Shown here piece after piece: positions 4,522-22,936 of a DNA stretch of 64,000 nucleotides. Below the pieces are notes generated by a model that worked only from the letters and a program-made list of their open reading frames with translations, was not told the DNA's origin and searched no databases. The translations under genes were made by a program, and so were the position numbers. Each line of letters begins with the position of its first letter. Position 1 is the first letter of the stretch. The DNA comes from a virus. The stretch is taken from the IMG/VR virus record IMGVR_UViG_3300027792_000292, positions 62,001 through 126,000 of that record; one strand, 5' to 3'.

Positions 4522-6497
4522 CTAATTTTAAAATTGAAGAAGCTATAATTCAGCTAAATAAATATGACGATGCCTATTATAATGGGGAGTCTATTATCTC
4601 AGACAACGCCTATGATGCTTTTAAAAAAAGCATATTAGATATTTTGCCTGAAGATCATATATTAAGGCATAAAGTTGGTCATATAACATCTTCAGCATGG
4701 CCAAAGAAATCTCATAAAATATTTATGGGTTCTCAGAATAAGGTGTCAGATGAGAATAGCATAATAGAATGGGTAGAGAGCATATATGAAAAACTTAAAA
4801 ATAGAAATATTAAGTTTATAGTACAGTATAAAATAGACGGGCTATCCCTAGGTTGCTATTATAAAAAGGGTGTAATTCAAGATGTACTAACTAGGGGGGA
4901 TGGTTTTTCTGGGGAGTCGATTGTAAATAATGCTATAAATTTTAGAGAGCTGCCATATTCCTTAGCAGTACTAAAAGATATTAATGTAAGAGGTGAAGGA
5001 TATTTATTAAATAAATATTTTGATATTATTCAAAAAAGGACACAAAATAAATATAAAAACGCAAGAAATGCTGTATCTGGTATATGCCGTAGGTTAGACG
5101 GCGATTGTTCTCATTTTGTAGATGTTTTCGCATTTGATATAAATGCTGAGGTTAAAACTGAAACAGAAAAAATTGAAGTTCTTAAAAAGTTAGGCTTTAA
5201 TGTTGTACCGACTATAAGTTGCAGTACAATAGATGATATTTTAAAAATATATAGAGATGTACGGGATAATAAAAGAAAAAATTTATTATTCGGGATAGAC
5301 GGGCTAGTTTTAAAGGTTGATAATTTAGATTTTCAAAAAGAACTTGGTATAGAGCATAACAGACCAGTAGCCCAAATAGCTTTAAAATTTGACTCCGAAG
5401 AAGAAACAACTACTATAGAAGATATAAGATTACAGGTAGGTAGGACGGGGAAGATTGTACCTATCGCTATTCTAACCCCCGTAGAACTTATGGGAAGTAC
5501 GGTAAAGAAAGCTTCTCTTCATAATTTTAGATATATAGAAGAATGTCAGATTGGAATAGGTGCTGTAGTATCTATAGAAAAATGCGGAGATATAATTCCA
5601 CAAGTTTCAGATTTAGTTTTAGCAGGTAAAAATTATATAAAACCAGAAGTATGTCCCTCTTGTGGGAAACCTGTTGATGATGATGGAGTGAATCTTTGGT
5701 GTAAGAATAAAAGCTGTAAAGAAAAAGAAATTAATCGTATAAATTATTGGATGAGTGTTTTAGATATAAAAGGCTTCTCTAATAAGTTTATAGAGAAATT
5801 ATGGGATTTAGGGAAAATTAATTGTGCGGGAGACTTATACAAGCTTAAACCAGAAGATTTTGAAGAGGTAGCGGGTATTGGTTCTAAAACCATAAAGAAT
5901 TTTTTTAAAGTACTTGAAGATACCTCCGAGATGTATCTTGAAACTTTTATAAGAGCCCTAGGAATTTCTTCTTGCTCTGTATCTACTTCCGCTACTCTTG
6001 TTCACAATTTTAAAGATTGGGATACTATAAAAAACATAAAACCTGAAGATTTAGCAAAAATACCTGGATACGGGATTTCATCTGCTACAACTATTTGTGA
6101 GGATATGAGAGAGATTTTTGATATGGCAGATGAACTATTATCTGTGATTAAAATTAAACATAAAAAAATAGGTAGCCTAAATAATAAGTCTTTTTGTGCT
6201 ACAGGTGCTTTTAATAGCATGTCACGTAAATCTTTTCAAGACTTAGTTACTGAAAATGGTGGTATAGCTAAAAATGATGTAGGTAAAGGATTAGATTATT
6301 TAGTTTCAAATGATAGTAACTCTGGATCTTCAAAAAATGAAAAAGCCAAAAAATTCGGAGTAAAAGTTATCAGTGAAAAGGACTTTATGGCTTTAGTAGG
6401 TACTACTGTTGAGGCCAAAGCAGAAGAGAAAAAAGAGAAAGAAAAAAAAGATAGCGGAGTAGCATTGGTGTATAATAATATCTTTGAGGAAGATTGA
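4518..6497 (+). CDS. ligA: NAD+-dependent DNA ligase LigA
   Basis: 659 residues, full length for the family. In order: Ia-like N-terminus, nucleotidyltransferase domain with adenylated Lys105 in YKIDG, OB fold (LQVGRTGKIVPIAILTPV), four-Cys zinc finger (CPSCGKP...CKNKSC), helix-hairpin-helix segment (VAGIGSKTIKNFF and IPGYGISSATT) and a BRCT domain near residues 550-630. It seals nicks in replication and repair using NAD+. All key motifs are intact. An extra Lys/Glu-rich tail follows BRCT. Confidence 0.95.
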   Translation: MTNFKIEEAIIQLNKYDDAYYNGESIISDNAYDAFKKSILDILPEDHILRHKVGHITSSAWPKKSHKIFMGSQNKVSDENSIIEWVESIYEKLKNRNIKFIVQYKIDGLSLGCYYKKGVIQDVLTRGDGFSGESIVNNAINFRELPYSLAVLKDINVRGEGYLLNKYFDIIQKRTQNKYKNARNAVSGICRRLDGDCSHFVDVFAFDINAEVKTETEKIEVLKKLGFNVVPTISCSTIDDILKIYRDVRDNKRKNLLFGIDGLVLKVDNLDFQKELGIEHNRPVAQIALKFDSEEETTTIEDIRLQVGRTGKIVPIAILTPVELMGSTVKKASLHNFRYIEECQIGIGAVVSIEKCGDIIPQVSDLVLAGKNYIKPEVCPSCGKPVDDDGVNLWCKNKSCKEKEINRINYWMSVLDIKGFSNKFIEKLWDLGKINCAGDLYKLKPEDFEEVAGIGSKTIKNFFKVLEDTSEMYLETFIRALGISSCSVSTSATLVHNFKDWDTIKNIKPEDLAKIPGYGISSATTICEDMREIFDMADELLSVIKIKHKKIGSLNNKSFCATGAFNSMSRKSFQDLVTENGGIAKNDVGKGLDYLVSNDSNSGSSKNEKAKKFGVKVISEKDFMALVGTTVEAKAEEKKEKEKKDSGVALVYNNIFEED

Positions 6498-10498: not shown

Positions 10499-11707
10499 AT
10501 GAGTATGCTAAATGCGTCTGTTTTTTCCATAACTCCTCATATGCAAAGAGTTATGGATATCAATGGTTGTTATGCTTCAATAATGAGGGCAGAAAAGAAA
10601 CAAGAAGAGAGTAGTGATGGGTTACCCTCAGGTATACCTATACCAGTTCTTCCTGTAGATTACCTGAAAGATCGCCCCAAGGAATGGGTTGGCGGAGAGG
10701 GGTCTTACGTAGTACCTGTAGATTCTGATTGGGGTCTTTGGTTCAATTGGACTATGAATAATCCAATGGATACATCTGTTCTCGTTTCAGTAAAAGGGAT
10801 GAATCCATTGACCGGACAGAAAATAAATGGGTACACTCTTGAAGAGACTGGGAATGAATGCCCTATTCATAAGACTCCTTTTAAGAGGGGCAAGCTTTGT
10901 ACTGAGTGTGGATTTAAGTGGCCATCACAGAATTTTATTTCAGCCCCCAACCCACTTTATCTCGATGGTTTTAGACAAGCAGATGGAAATGTTCGTCAGT
11001 TCTTCTTCACTGAAGATATGGCACGTTCAATACCAGAGTTGGTAATTGGTAAAGAAGATACTGTGCCAGCGTTTGGATTCTGCTTTTATCGAAGAAAGAA
11101 GTATGAGATAACGTATGAGGGAGGGAATAGATGTAAGAACGAATTTCCAAAAATTCAAGATATAAATGTAAGTTACCTAATAGGAGAAACAGGCGCACTA
11201 TGTACTTCCTGTGATTCTTTAGAATACGAACGTAGAACTTCTGGAGCCAGGCTCAGAGGCGGTGGCGTAGGGTCTACGAAGCGTTTTGGGCATCTATATA
11301 GTAAAGGACTCAGTAGTAGCTACGAGGCTTCCTATAGTACTTTATGTTGTGCTGCTGATGCCTCAGTTTCTTCATCAGAGCCAGAATTAAGGGCTTTCTA
11401 TGCGGATTCTGATGTAGCACATACTATCAATCTTGTAGACTCCTTTAGTGATGCTATAGAAGACCGTAGCGAAGTAAGGCTATATAAAAGTGCTGATGTG
11501 GGTATCGGCGCTGGAGCTAGGATAAAACAGGACTTCATAAAATCTATAGTTCCTTTAGAGGATTGGAAGGAAAAACCCGAAGGTACACTCAGGTTATATT
11601 TTGTCTTCCAGGAACAGTTTGAGGCTATGGCTGAAGCAGGCTTTAACGACCTTAGCGGAGCTAAGGAAGGATATTTGGTAAATCTTCCCGTAGGAGGTAG
11701 CAAATGA
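10499..11707 (+). CDS. Zinc-containing protein of unknown function coupled to a vWA protein
   Basis: 402 residues starting after CGAGGAG. A four-Cys/His cluster (CPIHKTPFKRGKLCTECGFKW, about residues 121-140) precedes a conserved-looking segment LYLDGFRQADGNVRQFFFT. I have an impression of a similar W/Y-LDGF...VRQF signature in bacterial and fungal proteins near ubiquitin-type genes, but I cannot verify it. Its stop overlaps the start of the vWA gene (ATGA), so both are translated together and probably act as partners. Confidence 0.6.
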   Translation: MSMLNASVFSITPHMQRVMDINGCYASIMRAEKKQEESSDGLPSGIPIPVLPVDYLKDRPKEWVGGEGSYVVPVDSDWGLWFNWTMNNPMDTSVLVSVKGMNPLTGQKINGYTLEETGNECPIHKTPFKRGKLCTECGFKWPSQNFISAPNPLYLDGFRQADGNVRQFFFTEDMARSIPELVIGKEDTVPAFGFCFYRRKKYEITYEGGNRCKNEFPKIQDINVSYLIGETGALCTSCDSLEYERRTSGARLRGGGVGSTKRFGHLYSKGLSSSYEASYSTLCCAADASVSSSEPELRAFYADSDVAHTINLVDSFSDAIEDRSEVRLYKSADVGIGAGARIKQDFIKSIVPLEDWKEKPEGTLRLYFVFQEQFEAMAEAGFNDLSGAKEGYLVNLPVGGSK

Positions 11708-12309
11708 ATAAAGTAGATTTGTTATTTATAGTAGATATAACAGGATCTATGGGGAATCTTATTACAGAAGCAAAAAGAAGGATGAAGGATATTTTAGATA
11801 GGATAGTTAAAGAATATAATATCGATTTAAAAGTTGGGTTAAGCTTTTATAGAGATCACCCATCGCAGGAAAGCACCTTTGTTACTGTTACATATGACTT
11901 AGATGATGTTGGTAAGACTGTAAAAGTGTTTGATACAGTTACAGCTTCAGGTGGAGGAGATACACCAGAAGCAGGTTTAGATGGAATTATTGATGGTATA
12001 AGTGACATGAAGTGGAGAGAGGGTTCCAGAAGAGTAGCTTTTCTTATTGGGGATGCTCCACTACACGGTATGTATGGTGATGAGGGTTGCTGTATGTGTG
12101 GGAAGACTTGGGGAGATGCTATTTCTATAGCACAGTCTAAAGAAGTTACTATTTATTCTATCGTGTTAGGCGGAAATAGTGAAGCTCAGGATAATTTCAA
12201 AACATTAGCTATTTTTTCTGGTGGCCTTTATATCAAGACGGAAGATGCTATTGGTGCTATTTTTAATACACTAAAAGTTACTATGGAAGACCTTTCTATA
12301 AAAAGATAA
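11704..12309 (+). CDS. von Willebrand factor A (vWA) domain protein
   Basis: 201 residues, essentially one vWA domain. The MIDAS motif D-x-T-G-S is seen as VDITGSM near residue 10, followed by GGGDTPEAGLDG, carrying the MIDAS Thr, and LIGDAP, the third metal loop. It should bind a divalent metal and a protein ligand. A CCMCGK segment may add a zinc site. Coupled by a 4-nt overlap to the gene before it. No MoxR ATPase is adjacent. Confidence 0.85.
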   Translation: MNKVDLLFIVDITGSMGNLITEAKRRMKDILDRIVKEYNIDLKVGLSFYRDHPSQESTFVTVTYDLDDVGKTVKVFDTVTASGGGDTPEAGLDGIIDGISDMKWREGSRRVAFLIGDAPLHGMYGDEGCCMCGKTWGDAISIAQSKEVTIYSIVLGGNSEAQDNFKTLAIFSGGLYIKTEDAIGAIFNTLKVTMEDLSIKR

Positions 12310-15254: not shown

Positions 15255-15284
15255 CTTGATCTTAAATAAGTGAAATGGTATATT
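15255..15284 (+). promoter_or_regulatory. Promoter of RNA unit A (CTTGAT-18-TATATT)
   Basis: CTTGAT at 15255-15260, 18 bp, TATATT at 15279-15284, extended to TATATTAG. Transcription would start about 15 nt before the outer stem of RNA unit A. Confidence 0.8.
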
Positions 15285-15307
15285 AGTAGTACGATCTTTG
15301 ATAAAAT

Positions 15308-15456
15308 GGGTTCTGCACTCTGACAGATAATGGATGCGTACATTTGCATTTGCATTTAGCTCAGTCGGTAGAGCTGAGGAATAATAATCCTTTGGTCGGC
15401 GGTTCAACTCCGCTAGTGCATTCCTTTCTATCGCATCTGCGACTTGTGCAGAACCC
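15308..15456 (+). ncRNA. Y-RNA-like unit A with tRNA-like module
   Basis: A perfect 11-bp outer stem (GGGTTCTGCAC, 15308-15318, with 15446-15456) encloses an internal loop, then the inner stem GATGCG (15333-15338) with CGCATC (15432-15437), then TACATT and a complete tRNA-like cloverleaf (15350-15422). The inner motif is shared by all seven units here. A Ro60 gene lies 1.7 kb downstream, so I interpret this as a Y RNA of the YrlA type, whose stem binds Ro60 and whose module contacts an effector. An AT-rich tail (TTTTAAAATTTTT) after the outer stem may terminate it. Confidence 0.75.
15350..15422 (+). tRNA. tRNA-like module of unit A (anticodon AAT), embedded in the Y-like RNA
   Basis: Acceptor TTGCATT (15350-15356) pairs with AGTGCAT except for a U-U mismatch at position 1-72. 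D arm GCTC/GAGC with loop AGTCGGTA, anticodon arm GAGGA/TCCTT with loop ATAATAA (anticodon AAT), T arm GGCGG/CCGCT with loop TTCAACT. No CCA is encoded. The A34 anticodon is rare in bacteria, and the module sits inside a larger hairpin, so it is more likely a mimic than a free tRNA. Confidence 0.6.
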
Positions 15457-15469
15457 TTTTAAAATTTTT

Positions 15470-15499
15470 CTTGATCATTGAATACCGAAATGGTATATT
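15470..15499 (+). promoter_or_regulatory. Promoter of RNA unit B (CTTGAT-18-TATATT)
   Basis: CTTGAT at 15470-15475 and TATATT at 15494-15499 with an 18-bp spacer; the spacer end CGAAATGG resembles that of unit A (TGAAATGG). Confidence 0.8.
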
Positions 15500-15536
15500 A
15501 GTGTTACTCAAGTGAAACTTGGAAAGTTCTTTGAAA

Positions 15537-15661
15537 GATACGAAGCATACTCAAACCCTTGATGCATACATTATAGCTCATTGGTAGAGCGTTTGCCATT
15601 TAAGCAAAAGGTACGGTTCAAATCCGTTCGTCCCGCATTAGTAACTCGTGTGCTTTGTATC
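15537..15661 (+). ncRNA. Y-RNA-like unit B with acceptor-less tRNA-like module
   Basis: A 14-bp outer stem with two G-U pairs (15537-15550 with 15648-15661), inner stem GATGC (15561-15565) with GCATT (15635-15639), then TACATT. The module has a D arm GCTC/GAGC with loop ATTGGTA, anticodon-like arm TTTGC/GCAAA with loop CATTTAA, and T arm ACGG/CCGT with loop TTCAAAT. The positions of the acceptor strands (TACATTA and CGTCCCG) do not pair, so the Y stem replaces the acceptor. Position 33 is A rather than the universal U. Cannot be a working tRNA. Confidence 0.75.
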
Positions 15662-15670
15662 TATATATTT

Positions 15671-15735: not shown

Positions 15736-15767
15736 ACTGAAAATAAGTTTTTTGATAATAGATCTTT

Positions 15768-15913
15768 GACATGAGTTACACTCCAACTTTTGATGCGTAC
15801 ATTTGCTTTTTCGTCCAATTGGTAGGACATTACTCTGATAAAGTGATTGTTGGGGGTTCAAGTCCCTCAAAAGCAGCCCAAAACTCGCATTATCAACTTG
15901 TGTAACTCATGTC
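15768..15913 (+). ncRNA. Y-RNA-like unit C with canonical tRNA cloverleaf
   Basis: A perfect 13-bp outer stem GACATGAGTTACA (15768-15780) with 15901-15913, inner stem GATGCG (15792-15797) with CGCATT (15886-15891), then TACATT and a complete tRNA-Ile-like cloverleaf (15804-15876). No strong own promoter is seen; it may be read from the unit B promoter. A T-run follows the outer stem and may terminate it. Confidence 0.75.
15804..15876 (+). tRNA. tRNA-Ile(GAT)-like cloverleaf inside unit C
   Basis: All arms pair: acceptor TGCTTTT/AAAAGCA (7 of 7), D stem GTCC/GGAC with loop AATTGGTA, anticodon stem TTACT/AGTGA with loop CTGATAA (U33, anticodon GAT at 15837-15839), T stem GGGGG/CCCTC with loop TTCAAGT, discriminator G, then CCC instead of CCA. 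Structurally it could be a true tRNA-Ile, but it is enclosed in a 13-bp outer stem and the shared Y-like motif. It may be both, if nucleases free it. Confidence 0.65.
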
Positions 15914-15921
15914 ATTTTTTT

Positions 15922-15951
15922 CTTGATCTTTAATTACCAAAAAGGTATATT
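15922..15951 (+). promoter_or_regulatory. Promoter of RNA unit D (CTTGAT-18-TATATT)
   Basis: CTTGAT at 15922-15927, 18 bp, TATATT at 15946-15951, again extended to TATATTAG. A small hairpin GACCT-GAAA-AGGTC follows at about 15960-15973 before the unit. Confidence 0.8.
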
Positions 15952-15989: not shown

Positions 15990-16152
15990 AGAAGCACTCT
16001 CTAATTTTGGATGCATACATTGGTTCAAGCGTTTGCTAACTAAAGCAAAAGATTGTTCGTTCAAGTCGAACTTCCCCCACCAAGTAGATTTTAATGTCTA
16101 CTTGGTGGGGGAAAAGCTTAATAAAAAAAGCATTTATAACTTGAGTGTTTCT
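15990..16152 (+). ncRNA. Y-RNA-like unit D with degenerate tRNA-like module and inserted hairpin
   Basis: Outer stem AGAAGCACTC (15990-15999) with GAGTGTTTCT (16143-16152), inner motif GATGCATACATT paired to GCATTTATAACTT. The module resembles unit B but its D arm is worn away; an anticodon-like arm TTTGC/GCAAA and a T arm GTTCG/CGAAC with loop TTCAAGT remain. A perfect hairpin of about 17 bp (16072-16113) follows the T arm where an acceptor strand would be. Confidence 0.65.
16072..16113 (+). repeat. Long perfect hairpin within unit D
   Basis: CCCCCACCAAGTAGA (16074-16088) pairs with TCTACTTGGTGGGGG (16097-16111), extended by two T-A pairs, with an 8-nt loop. Far more stable than the rest of the unit. 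Because A-rich rather than T-rich sequence follows, it is not a normal + strand terminator. Confidence 0.7.
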
Positions 16153-16196: not shown

Positions 16197-16336
16197 GAAA
16201 AGTATCTTCTAACAGTTAGGGCGTACATTATCCTGTAAAGATAAACGCCTGGGCATTAAGCGCTCAGGCATCTGTATTCCTTCCGCCTTAGCGCGGCTGG
16301 GATATAGCACACGCATTGATTACTCGGATACTTCTC
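16197..16336 (+). ncRNA. Y-RNA-like unit E with non-tRNA module
   Basis: Outer stem GAAAAGTATC (16197-16206) with GATACTTCTC (16327-16336), one mismatch. The shared motif appears as GGGCGTACATT and CGCATTGATTACT. The module forms two hairpins: GCCTG/CAGGC with inner GC/GC, and TATTCC/GGGATA enclosing CCGC/GCGG. No T loop is present, so this module is not tRNA-like. A hairpin CCCTAT-GTA-ATAGGG lies upstream, as hairpins do before units B and D. No clear promoter. Confidence 0.6.
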
Positions 16337-16358
16337 TTGTCATACTCTTTGAAATTAT

Positions 16359-16481
16359 AGTGTATTTATCCTCTAATGCTGAGGGCTTACATTTTCTACG
16401 GTTGAAAAACAAGCCTAAGCGCACTCCCGTTTGGTGGGAGGAAGCGATGGGTCGAGCACTTAGGACTCGGATAAATACATT
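16359..16481 (+). ncRNA. Y-RNA-like unit F, most diverged, with hairpin module
   Basis: A perfect 11-bp outer stem TGTATTTATCC (16361-16371) with GGATAAATACA (16469-16479), extendable by two pairs. The shared motif is degenerate: GGGCTTACATT and GCACTTAGGACTCGG, with CTGAGGGC/GCACTTAG pairing but for one mismatch. The module has hairpin CTCCC/GGGAG and no tRNA arms. TCTTTGAAA lies just upstream as for other units. An ORF across this region is spurious. Confidence 0.55.
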
Positions 16482-16501
16482 ATTATATAATTACTATGAG
16501 T

Positions 16502-16652
16502 ATAAGTCTCATCTTCTAACTTTTGATGCGTACATTGTCATGCTGGTTCGAATCCAGTCGCTCTTTTCGGAGAGCGTAGCCGAATGGTAAGGCACCCGTT
16601 TAAGGAACAGGAACAAAACAAACTTCGCATTAGTAACTTGGATGGGATTTAT
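16502..16652 (+). ncRNA. Y-RNA-like unit G with circularly permuted tRNA-like module
   Basis: A 12-bp outer stem with two G-U pairs (16502-16513 with 16641-16652) and the full motif GATGCGTACATT (16525-16536) with CGCATTAGTAACTTG (16626-16640). The module runs in permuted order: T arm GCTGG-TTCGAAT-CCAGT, acceptor strands CGCTCTT and GAGAGCG joined by a TTCG tetraloop, TA, D arm GCC-GAATGGTAA-GGC, then anticodon arm CCCGT/ACAGG (one mismatch) with loop TTAAGGA. T arm before D arm is, as I recall, the YrlA arrangement. The Y stem enters between anticodon and T arms. Confidence 0.8.
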
Positions 16653-16653
16653 T

Positions 16654-16689
16654 AAGAGCCGGGATTCGAAAGGATTCCGGCTCTTTTTT
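16654..16689 (+). terminator. Terminator closing the RNA array
   Basis: AAGAGCCGG (16654-16662) pairs with CCGGCTCTT (16677-16685), followed by a run of T. It separates the RNA array from the Ubl/Ro60 operon. Confidence 0.85.
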
Positions 16690-16804: not shown

Positions 16805-17062
16805 ATGGCAAGTGTGCATATTCGTTACGATGGTAGTACCAGGGAAGTCGATTTCGAAAATATTTTTCCAGAAGATCGACTTACAGCTATAGGGATTGCC
16901 AATACCGCGCAGGTTAACTCACGCAACGTGAGCGCCGATAACGTCAAGACTGCCGTAGCGCAGTATCTCGATATCGGATTGGGAGAACTTGATGGGTATA
17001 ACGTCGAGTTCCATAAGAACGGAAACATCACCGTTCGCCCTGATGCTGTATTTGGGAAGTAA
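16805..17062 (+). CDS. Small ubiquitin-like (beta-grasp) candidate
   Basis: 85 residues from the ATG after AGAGGAGG; an in-frame ATA at 16760 is too far upstream. Predicted pattern is strands near residues 2-14, a helix near 43-53 and strands near 63-80, ending VRPDAVFGK. Size and layout fit a beta-grasp/ubiquitin-like protein, and a JAMM protease and an E1-like enzyme are encoded 4-6 kb downstream. There is no C-terminal GG; FGK would need trimming or a different chemistry. Function is inferred. First gene of the Ro60 operon, with CGT-rich codon use. Confidence 0.45.
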   Translation: MASVHIRYDGSTREVDFENIFPEDRLTAIGIANTAQVNSRNVSADNVKTAVAQYLDIGLGELDGYNVEFHKNGNITVRPDAVFGK

Positions 17063-17132: not shown

Positions 17133-18731
17133 ATGAATCGTCAGCGTAACACTCAAACTGTTTCCGCGCCACAAATACCACAGGTTGAACAGGACATCCG
17201 TGTTCAAATGCTCAATAGCTTCATGTCCTGTCCACATCGTGATACTGATGCGATCAGGAAGATACATGAGGATCTGCGACAGCGTGACCCTTCATTCTAC
17301 TCTCATCTTGCTGCCTGGTATGAGAAGAATGGCGAACTTCGCGACCACAAGGAAGTATTCATTTCTATGTTGATCGTAGACCCCTATCTCGATAACCGTG
17401 AGGTTGGTCTTGCCCTGTGGCAGAAAGCTGTGCCTTTCATGAAGACCCGTATCCTTGGTTTCATTAAGGGTAAGAAGGTCAAGATTCGTGAGAAGACAAA
17501 TCAGACACGCCAAGTTGGAAAGAAGAAAATTCCGGTAGTAAACGTGACCGAGAAAGTTGTGGGCCTTTTTAAGAACGTGCCCTCAGCGTTCAAGACTGAG
17601 GTGGTACACTATCTAAAGTGGTTAGAGACCGACCCTGAGCGTTTTGATGGTGTGGCTATGCGCAACTCTGAGGATTTGAGGACGCTCTACGCTTCCTTGA
17701 AAATCCCTCACTCAAAGAGAGTGCAACAAATCCTTTGGGAGAAGAAGTACCCAAAGGAGAGTAAGTTGAATGTTTTCAAGGAGATTACGGATGCGAAGTC
17801 TCCTGAAGAAGCAGCAACGCTCATTGTTAAGAATAAGGTTCCGTATACTACGGCAGTAGGTCTCATTGAGAAGATGACCCCCTCCATCTTGGTTGCTCTC
17901 ATCAATAATATGAGTTCCCAGGAAGTTATTAACAACATTGCTTCTCTTCAGGAGAGTGGTGCATTAGATAACCCTGATACTAAGGCTATGGTTGAAAAGA
18001 AGCTTAAGCAGGCTGAGACCGCAAAGAATGTTACAGCCTTGAAGTCTAAAGCAGCGATTAATACAGGTCGTATCAAGGATGAGGCTGTCGTGGCGCAACT
18101 TGATAAGATTGCAGATGTACAAATAAAGAGCAAAGGTATCATTATGGCTTCTACAGCGATCTTTGTAGATCGCTCTGGATCGATGAGCATTGCTATTGAG
18201 TCAGGGAAGCATTGTGCAGCGATGGTATCCGGTGCTACAGAAGCTCCTTTGTATGTGGTTGCCTTTGATACGCTTCCAATGGAAATCTATCCAGTGTCCG
18301 CACGTCCAAAGGACAGGACCACTACCATGACCGACTGGGAAAGGGCATTTAAGCCTGTGCGCGATGGTGGTTCGACTTCTATGGGATGTGCTTTGGAGTA
18401 TCTGCGTCAAAAGAAGATGTACGTTGAGCAGATTGTTGTTATTACTGATGAGGGTGAGAATGCAACCCCCATGTTCACTGATGTCTATACTCGGTACTCC
18501 GAGGAGATGAAGGTGAAGCCTCATGTGGTTATCATCCGTACACCAAATTCAGGTCATACTTTCAGCACAAACCTGAAGAGGGCTGGTATTAGTTATGATG
18601 TATACACTCCTAATGGGTCAGACTACTATGGTTTACCAGGATTGATTCCACTTCTTGCCCGAACATCGAAGCTGGACCTTCTTATGGAGATCATGGATAC
18701 TCCGCTTCCTACACGTAGGCAGTGGAAGTAA
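17133..18731 (+). CDS. rsr: Ro60/TROVE-vWA protein (Rsr-like)
   Basis: 532 residues, close to the size of bacterial Rsr and animal Ro60. Residues of about 20-330 are a helical-repeat TROVE region (for example AFKTEVVHYLKWL, TAVGLIEKMTPSILVALINNM). The vWA domain begins near residue 340 with the MIDAS motif DRSGSMS (Asp346) and continues with GGSTSMG and VITDEGE. Ro60 is a ring that binds Y RNAs on its outer face and RNA 3' ends in its cavity. The seven Y-like RNAs directly upstream are the obvious ligands. Arg is mostly CGT/CGC, unlike neighbours. Confidence 0.9.
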   Translation: MNRQRNTQTVSAPQIPQVEQDIRVQMLNSFMSCPHRDTDAIRKIHEDLRQRDPSFYSHLAAWYEKNGELRDHKEVFISMLIVDPYLDNREVGLALWQKAVPFMKTRILGFIKGKKVKIREKTNQTRQVGKKKIPVVNVTEKVVGLFKNVPSAFKTEVVHYLKWLETDPERFDGVAMRNSEDLRTLYASLKIPHSKRVQQILWEKKYPKESKLNVFKEITDAKSPEEAATLIVKNKVPYTTAVGLIEKMTPSILVALINNMSSQEVINNIASLQESGALDNPDTKAMVEKKLKQAETAKNVTALKSKAAINTGRIKDEAVVAQLDKIADVQIKSKGIIMASTAIFVDRSGSMSIAIESGKHCAAMVSGATEAPLYVVAFDTLPMEIYPVSARPKDRTTTMTDWERAFKPVRDGGSTSMGCALEYLRQKKMYVEQIVVITDEGENATPMFTDVYTRYSEEMKVKPHVVIIRTPNSGHTFSTNLKRAGISYDVYTPNGSDYYGLPGLIPLLARTSKLDLLMEIMDTPLPTRRQWK

Positions 18732-20788: not shown

Positions 20789-21145
20789 ATGAATGAAAAG
20801 TGTTGGTTTATCTTCGGTAAGAAGGTAAAGAATACATACATCGGATGGTTGAAGTATAGCTCTGAGGGAAATCCAGTAAGTGTAAGTTTTAATTGGTCAG
20901 ATGCAGCAAAGAAGAATCTTCTTGGATTTCATCACACACATCCTGATGGCTGTTTATGGTTTTCTTCAAGAGATGATAAGACAATGAAAGCTTGGGCCAG
21001 GGCAGAGGGAAAACCCCTTATCTGCTCAGTAAGAAGTAGTGGGAAAGATGCAGCAGCGATATGGAAGAGAATGGAAGATAAAAGTGTAGGGCATCTACCG
21101 CTACATGTAATGATAAAAGGTAACCTATTTATGGCATGGGAATAA
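20789..21145 (+). CDS. JAMM/JAB-type metalloprotease (isopeptidase-like)
   Basis: 118 residues, a minimal MPN domain. The metal site H-x-H-x(7)-S-x(2)-D is exact: His49-Thr-His51, Ser59 and Asp62 in HHTHPDGCLWFSSRDD. JAMM enzymes cleave isopeptide or C-terminal peptide bonds of ubiquitin-like proteins; in bacteria they process Ubl precursors or remove Ubl from targets. Paired here with an E1-like protein at 22298 and a Ubl candidate at 16805. It lacks the NlpC domain of tail JAB proteins, which argues against a tail-assembly role. Confidence 0.8.
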   Translation: MNEKCWFIFGKKVKNTYIGWLKYSSEGNPVSVSFNWSDAAKKNLLGFHHTHPDGCLWFSSRDDKTMKAWARAEGKPLICSVRSSGKDAAAIWKRMEDKSVGHLPLHVMIKGNLFMAWE

Positions 21146-22297: not shown

Positions 22298-22936
22298 ATG
22301 AAGACCTTTGTACATGAGGAAGTTTACCGGGGTAAGGAAACCCTGGATAAGATTGCAAAAGCTAAGTTCACTATTTGCGGGCTCGGAGCTATCGGCTCAA
22401 ACCTTGTGATGAACATGGCTCGTCAGAGTTTCACGAATTTCACGGTTATTGATTTTGACCGTATAGAGGATCACAATCGTCATACACAAATTTGGGGTGC
22501 AAAAGAAGTCGGTCAGATGAAGGCTGCTATGATGCAGCGCCGAATGTACGATGAGATGGGTTTGAAGATTCAGATAGAGCCAAAGAAGTTAGATGAGGCC
22601 AACATTAAGAAGCTTGTACAGAAGGACACTATTGTGATAGATGGTTTTGACAATACTGAAGCTCGTGGTCTTGTGACTACGTTCTGTACTGAGAACAAGA
22701 TTCAATGCTTGCACATAGGGATGCGTCAGGACTACGCAGAGGTTATCTGGAATGAAAACTACATAGTCCCTAAGAAGCACGGAAAAGATATCTGTGAGTA
22801 TCCCCTTGCCAGGAATATTATTCTGTTGGCAGTGGCTGTGGGTACAGAAACTATTCTTCGCTATGTGGATACTGGGGTAAAAGAGAACTATGCAATCACC
22901 CTAAAAGACTGCAATATCTCTAAGCTGGAGTATTAA
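22298..22936 (+). CDS. ThiF/MoeB/E1-like adenylyltransferase
   Basis: 212 residues, a compact E1-type Rossmann domain. Seen: nucleotide-binding GLGAIG (residues 28-33), VIDFDRIEDHNRHTQ with the Asp and the Arg-finger-like residues, AKEVGQMKA with the ATP-contacting Lys, and VIDGFDN. These enzymes adenylate the C-terminus of a ubiquitin-like protein. No C-x2-C zinc pairs occur; a Cys in DICEYP lies about where a catalytic Cys could sit. Codon use is CGT-rich as in the Ro60 gene. With the JAMM protein and Ubl candidate it makes a minimal Ubl module; no E2 is seen. Confidence 0.85.
   Translation: MKTFVHEEVYRGKETLDKIAKAKFTICGLGAIGSNLVMNMARQSFTNFTVIDFDRIEDHNRHTQIWGAKEVGQMKAAMMQRRMYDEMGLKIQIEPKKLDEANIKKLVQKDTIVIDGFDNTEARGLVTTFCTENKIQCLHIGMRQDYAEVIWNENYIVPKKHGKDICEYPLARNIILLAVAVGTETILRYVDTGVKENYAITLKDCNISKLEY

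What the first reader, a model, noticed from the sequence alone, without database searches (positions are those of the whole stretch)
16525..16640. Circularly permuted tRNA fold in unit G
The order is T arm, acceptor 3' strand, TTCG tetraloop, acceptor 5' strand, TA, D arm, anticodon arm. All five helices pair and the invariant TTCGAAT and GGTAAGGC-type elements are in place. The ends of the tRNA are thus joined at the acceptor and opened beside the variable loop, where the Y stem enters. I recall that YrlA RNAs have T before D; this unit keeps a full 7-bp acceptor closed by a tetraloop.
Basis: partly seen in the sequence, partly recalled or inferred. Interest (0 to 1): 0.8.

Follow-up and report, generated by a model that had tools for sequence, protein, structure and literature searches.

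The report
Ro60-linked Y RNA, rearranged tRNA mimic
A virus of bacteria carries seven small RNAs next to a Ro60-like ring-protein gene, and one of them holds a complete tRNA shape with its parts in rotated order; the rotation and the sealed end are normal for this known RNA class (YrlA), but the extra anticodon arm and the mixed array around it are a new variant.

Summary
Unit G (16502-16652) folds as Y lower stem, internal loop, Y upper stem, T arm, 7-bp acceptor closed by UUCG, UA, D arm, anticodon arm, Y upper stem, internal loop with ACUUG, Y lower stem. Put back in normal order it is called a tRNA by ARAGORN, as are 7 of 7 sister modules; native order 0 of 8, shuffles 0 of 1600. The suspected novelty fails: Rfam YrlA has exactly this T - closed acceptor - UA - D core, and 51 of 57 distinct permuted modules near relatives of this gene pair all 7 acceptor positions. 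New relative to the YrlA consensus is the full anticodon arm after the D arm, so the tRNA is opened at the variable loop; this form is nearly confined to phage records here. The gene downstream is Ro60-like. Unit G is therefore most likely a Ro60-bound, YrlA-type, non-chargeable tRNA mimic. Its relatives reach cyanobacteria and other bacteria, where arrays of such units carry canonical and permuted tRNA modules and copies of 23S rRNA functional centres. Function is inferred, not shown.

The parts
16502..16514 (+). unit G, lower Y stem, 5' strand (ATAAGTCTCATCT), pairs with 16640-16652
16515..16522 (+). 5' side of the Ro-type internal loop (TCTAACTT)
   Evidence: CTAA-type motif shared by most units of the array
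16523..16530 (+). upper Y stem, 5' strand (TTGATGCG)
16531..16541 (+). linker TACATTGTCAT; TACA follows the upper stem in the array and in relatives
16542..16558 (+). T arm (5 bp, TTCGAAT loop)
16559..16576 (+). acceptor stem, 3' strand then 5' strand, 7 bp closed by TTCG
16577..16593 (+). U8-A9 and D arm (GCCGAATGGTAAGGC)
16595..16611 (+). anticodon arm, loop TTAAGGA (AAG, U33 kept), 4 of 5 pairs
16612..16625 (+). linker AACAAAACAAACTT
16626..16652 (+). upper Y stem 3' strand, internal loop TAACTT, lower Y stem 3' strand
   Evidence: ACUUG also in the RF02553 consensus
16654..16685 (+). intrinsic-terminator-like hairpin (14 pairs) with T run, just after unit G
15304..15460 (+). unit A: Y stem holding a canonical-order tRNA-like module (Ile, AAT)
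15536..15662 (+). unit B: canonical-order tRNA-like module without its own acceptor stem
15767..15914 (+). unit C: canonical-order tRNA-like module (Ile, GAT)
15990..16152 (+). unit D: anticodon-like arm, T arm (16055-16071), long closed hairpin in the acceptor place; degenerate YrlA-like order (read by eye)
16197..16336 (+). unit E: Y stem with hairpins, not tRNA-like
16357..16483 (+). unit F: Y stem with hairpins, not tRNA-like
17133..18731 (+). Ro60-like protein, 532 aa, vWA domain at the C-terminus
   Evidence: profile hits PDB RO60; AlphaFold2 model best matches Ro60/Rsr

Best explanation
Unit G is a Y RNA for the phage's own Ro60-like protein. The lower stem and internal loop are the Ro-binding part. 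The distal part is a circularly permuted, complete tRNA mimic whose acceptor is sealed by UUCG, so it cannot be charged or end-processed like a tRNA, while its T, D and anticodon arms can still be recognised by tRNA-handling proteins. The most likely job is that of an adaptor, docking such a protein onto the Ro ring, as YrlA is reported to do with PNPase. Shown here: the anatomy, the tRNA likeness, the Ro-like gene. Inferred: transcription, Ro binding, the partner and the adaptor role.
For: Y anatomy in all seven units, with lower stems that differ from unit to unit yet pair. The neighbouring protein matches RO60 and TROVE chains by profile (E 5e-4 and 8e-4), and its model's 13 best PDB matches are all Ro60/Rsr. 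The core matches RF02553 YrlA. De-permutation test. Eight distinct modules of the same order occur in seven viral or phage records, with compensating pair types in acceptor, T and anticodon stems (selection by the parser biases these counts). YrlA and PNPase tethering: PMC8394870; Rsr-PNPase: PMC7790460.
Against: No expression or binding data. The RF02553 score (24.7 bits) is far below gathering (69). Pfam TROVE is not hit. The anticodon loop keeps U33 and a purine at 37, more than a plain docking handle needs, which fits the decoy rival as well.
Confidence: 0.55

Rival explanations
1. Decoy or sensor: the Ro-Y array presents copies of translation RNAs (tRNA anticodon arms, 23S centres) to absorb or sense host RNases such as anticodon nucleases; unit G is one of the baits.
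For: U33 in 101 of 114 and a purine at 37 in 108 of 114 canonical modules measured without selecting for them; varied anticodons; sister arrays in bacteria carry 23S-like modules (GTPase-associated centre with sarcin-ricin loop, and positions 1909-1941); decoy role proposed for Salmonella YrlA in PMC7790460.
Against: No nuclease tested; Salmonella YrlA was not cut by its nuclease; closed acceptors and linkers are not needed for a decoy.
Confidence: 0.3
2. Permuted tRNA gene as in red algae and archaea: unit G is ligated across the Y stem, then opened at the acceptor to give a working tRNA-Leu(AAG).
For: Correct 3'-half before 5'-half order; archaeal permuted genes can have intervening sequences of 1 nt (PMC3978253).
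Against: The ends meet in 11- and 14-nt linkers and a conserved Ro-type stem, not a bulge-helix-bulge; no RtcB in any of 11 records searched, though several are fragments; C-A mismatch in the anticodon stem; the same order recurs in Ro-linked arrays.
Confidence: 0.03
3. Decayed or chance tRNA-like sequence without a role.
For: Units B and D are degenerate.
Against: 0 of 2065 shuffled modules parse; the same order recurs in independent records with different sequences; Y stems pair in every unit.
Confidence: 0.02

Closest known systems
YrlA bacterial Y RNA (Rfam RF02553)
   Same: Y stem, T arm, acceptor closed by a short loop, UA, D arm, Y stem; ACUUG on the 3' strand; near a Ro60-type gene
   Different: RF02553 consensus has no anticodon arm and a 6-bp acceptor; unit G adds a full anticodon arm after the D arm, has 7 bp, and scores below the family cut-off
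YrlA-like RNAs in other viral contigs (one search set)
   Same: closed acceptor, often with a tetraloop; T before D
   Different: many keep an anticodon-like hairpin before the T arm, so they are opened between D and anticodon arms; unit G is opened at the variable loop
Circularly permuted tRNA genes of algae and archaea (PMC3978253)
   Same: 3' half precedes 5' half, acceptor ends joined by a short sequence
   Different: no bulge-helix-bulge at the junction, Y stem instead, Ro gene nearby
Ro60/Rsr protein family (2nvo, 1yvp, Thermus phage phiLo Ro60 9l5y)
   Same: predicted fold of the 532-aa protein
   Different: Pfam TROVE does not detect it; 10-15% identity in the structural matches

Membership tests
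Bacterial Y RNA | long end-to-end stem with conserved internal loop near the ends | tested here: met
Bacterial Y RNA | encoded beside a Ro60 ortholog | tested here: met
   by profile and fold, not by Pfam TROVE
Bacterial Y RNA | binds the Ro60 protein | not testable with these tools
   needs a binding assay
YrlA (RF02553) | T arm - closed acceptor - UA - D arm order | tested here: met
   model positions 30-81
YrlA (RF02553) | Rfam gathering score (69 bits) | tested here: not met
   24.7 bits; several other viral YrlA-like RNAs also miss it
YrlA (RF02553) | D arm followed directly by the Y stem, no anticodon arm | tested here: not met
   anticodon arm 16595-16611 against the consensus
YrlA (RF02553) | modified by tRNA enzymes (DusA, TruB) | not testable with these tools
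   target loops are present in sequence; literature PMC8394870
Permuted tRNA gene | 3' half upstream of 5' half | tested here: met
Permuted tRNA gene | bulge-helix-bulge at the junction | tested here: not met
   11- and 14-nt linkers and a Y stem at the junction, read by eye
Ro60/TROVE protein | Ro60 fold | tested here: met
   TM about 0.5-0.6, 13 best matches all Ro60/Rsr
Ro60/TROVE protein | Pfam TROVE (PF05731) match | tested here: not met
   no match in 11 records

The most novel reading that the evidence does not exclude
A Ro60 branch missed by the Pfam TROVE model, in cyanobacteria, other bacteria and huge phages, is served by arrays of Y RNAs that together mimic the RNAs of translation: tRNAs attached at the acceptor, D loop, D/anticodon junction or variable loop, and in bacteria the 23S GTPase-associated centre with the sarcin-ricin loop and helices 69-71. 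Unit G's order is a phage form of this catalogue, used as adaptor, decoy or sensor.
Probability: 0.4. Interest if true: 0.9.

Novelty: new variant of a known kind. Interest (0 to 1): 0.62.

Why it matters
It shows that the known YrlA tRNA mimic exists in several circular orders, with the Y stem attached at different points of the cloverleaf, side by side in one array. It ties a divergent Ro60 branch of phages and cyanobacteria to Y RNA arrays, and these give natural variants with which to ask what the tRNA mimic binds and whether the anticodon arm matters, an open question for bacterial Y RNAs.

Tried and rejected
Closed acceptor as a novelty: rejected by RF02553 and viral YrlA. Permuted tRNA gene: no bulge-helix-bulge, no RtcB found. 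Phage DNA similarity with the array: only a tRNA-sized match. The single-sequence protein scan of viral contigs found nothing; the two-row alignment worked. A pattern for a Y hairpin inside a tRNA found no match. Weak Rfam matches to microRNA and leader families are chance. Chen 2014 (RNA) and Wang 2018 (Structure) are not in the library, so what they already report on anticodon-like arms could not be checked.

Full report
WHAT IS THERE. The window is bases 62001-126000 of a 131-kb IMG/VR virus record. Between 15.3 and 16.65 kb lie seven units, A to G, each with a lower stem of 10-15 bp, an internal loop with ACUU or ACUC on the 3' side, an upper stem, a TACA or ACA motif and a distal module. 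The lower stems differ in sequence from unit to unit and all pair, which is what a conserved structure gives.

THE PERMUTATION. In unit G the order is T arm, acceptor 3' strand, UUCG, acceptor 5' strand, UA, D arm, anticodon arm. Cut at UUCG and joined at the variable loop, with the Y stem left out and ACCA added, it is called tRNA-Leu(AAG) by ARAGORN; so are the other seven distinct modules of this order found in related records, none is called in native order, and none of 1600 shuffles is called. A parser for canonical and permuted orders accepts 175 of 413 modules and none of 2065 shuffled ones. The shuffles keep base composition only, not dinucleotides. The anticodon stem has one C-A mismatch, so 'all five helices pair' is nearly but not fully right.

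IS THE CLOSED ACCEPTOR NEW? No. The core of unit G matches positions 30-81 of Rfam RF02553, YrlA, at 24.7 bits (gathering score 69). The consensus printed there and reads Y stem, T arm, 6-bp acceptor closed by 3 nt, UA, D arm, Y stem. Among 57 distinct permuted modules near relatives of the window's Ro-like gene, 51 pair at 7 of 7 acceptor positions; loops run from 3 to 15 nt, with one of 49.

WHAT IS DIFFERENT. The RF02553 consensus has no anticodon arm; many YrlA-like RNAs have an anticodon-like hairpin before the T arm (read by eye), so their tRNA is opened between D and anticodon arms. Unit G has the arm after the D arm and is opened at the variable loop. Under the strict parser this order occurs in 9 viral modules (8 distinct) and in none from genome contigs, while the arm-before-T order occurs 17 times in genome contigs and once in viral records. 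A looser search finds two weak genome cases of the unit G order (L195, L231), so 'phage form' means mostly, not only.

THE PROTEIN. The 532-aa product at 17133-18731 has no Pfam family at 1e-3 and Pfam TROVE is silent, but a profile of ten homologs matches human RO60 and TROVE chains of the PDB (E 5e-4 and 8e-4), and the AlphaFold2 model (pLDDT 83.7, pTM 0.79) has Ro60/Rsr entries as its 13 best matches, among them Deinococcus Rsr and Thermus phage phiLo Ro60. It is a divergent Ro60.

SURROUNDINGS AND RELATIVES. Homologs lie in other viral contigs, in a 595-kb uncultured phage and, at about 40% identity, in many cyanobacteria and some Acidobacteria, Planctomycetes and others. A search for the Y anatomy finds units at most of these loci, usually several on the strand of the gene; only 16 were found in all in one shuffle each of the loci that have at least one unit. 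In the same arrays modules of canonical order predominate (116 of 175). In some phages the tRNA is outside and the Y hairpin sits inside it, in or beside the D arm (read by eye). The Y stem is thus attached at several points of the cloverleaf, and unit G is one of these arrangements.

MECHANISM. YrlA is described as tethering Rsr to PNPase and as a substrate of tRNA-modifying enzymes (PMC8394870; Rsr-PNPase in PMC7790460). By analogy unit G should bind the phage Ro protein by its lower stem and offer a tRNA shape that cannot be charged. The adaptor reading is preferred because it is the only one with a worked precedent. The decoy reading gains from the well-kept anticodon loops (U33 in 101 of 114, purine 37 in 108 of 114 canonical modules, not selected for these bases) and from 23S-like modules in the bacterial arrays. 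Neither is tested.

LIMITS. No expression, binding or phenotype data. Virus records are fragments, so the lack of RtcB is weak. The parser requires pairing, so pair-type counts are not independent proof of covariation. The two central YrlA papers could not be read.

Noticed in passing
L172:9629-9833, L156:10604-10822, L206:8369-8583 and others: Y units in cyanobacterial loci whose modules resemble the 23S GTPase-associated centre (E. coli 1037-1113, up to 79% over 78 nt) together with the sarcin-ricin sequence AGTACGAGAGGA; the SRL motif is in 10 units.
   Followed up: partly
L171:4820-5010, L185:3377-3561, L164:790-1010 and about 15 more: Y units with a stretch matching 23S positions 1909-1941 (helices 69-71), 22-33 nt at 85-100% identity. 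A weaker 23-nt match lies in phage locus L001 near 4712-4734 (E 0.025).
   Followed up: partly
L001:3789-3915, 5968-6094; L133:7001, 7142, 7660; L136:4592, 6420; L134:7459: tRNA-like sequences with a Y hairpin inserted in the D loop or between D and anticodon arms, the Y part itself closed by a short loop such as GAAA.
   Followed up: partly
16805-17059, 20789-21145, 22298-22936: A small protein also read upstream of the Ro-like gene in L129, L131, L132 and L001 (by eye), a weak JAB-domain match and a ThiF (E1-like) protein: possibly a ubiquitin-like conjugation cassette near the Ro gene.
   Followed up: no
11704-12309: A separate vWA-domain protein.
   Followed up: no
15256-15284, 15471-15499, 15923-15951: Three TTGATC-17-TATATT promoter-like sites ahead of units A, B and D; the number of promoter-like sites is not above chance (6 found, 4.9 expected), but the hexamers repeat exactly.
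   Followed up: no
LR756511.1 250-300 kb (L128): 38 tRNA genes called in 50 kb of a huge phage.
   Followed up: no
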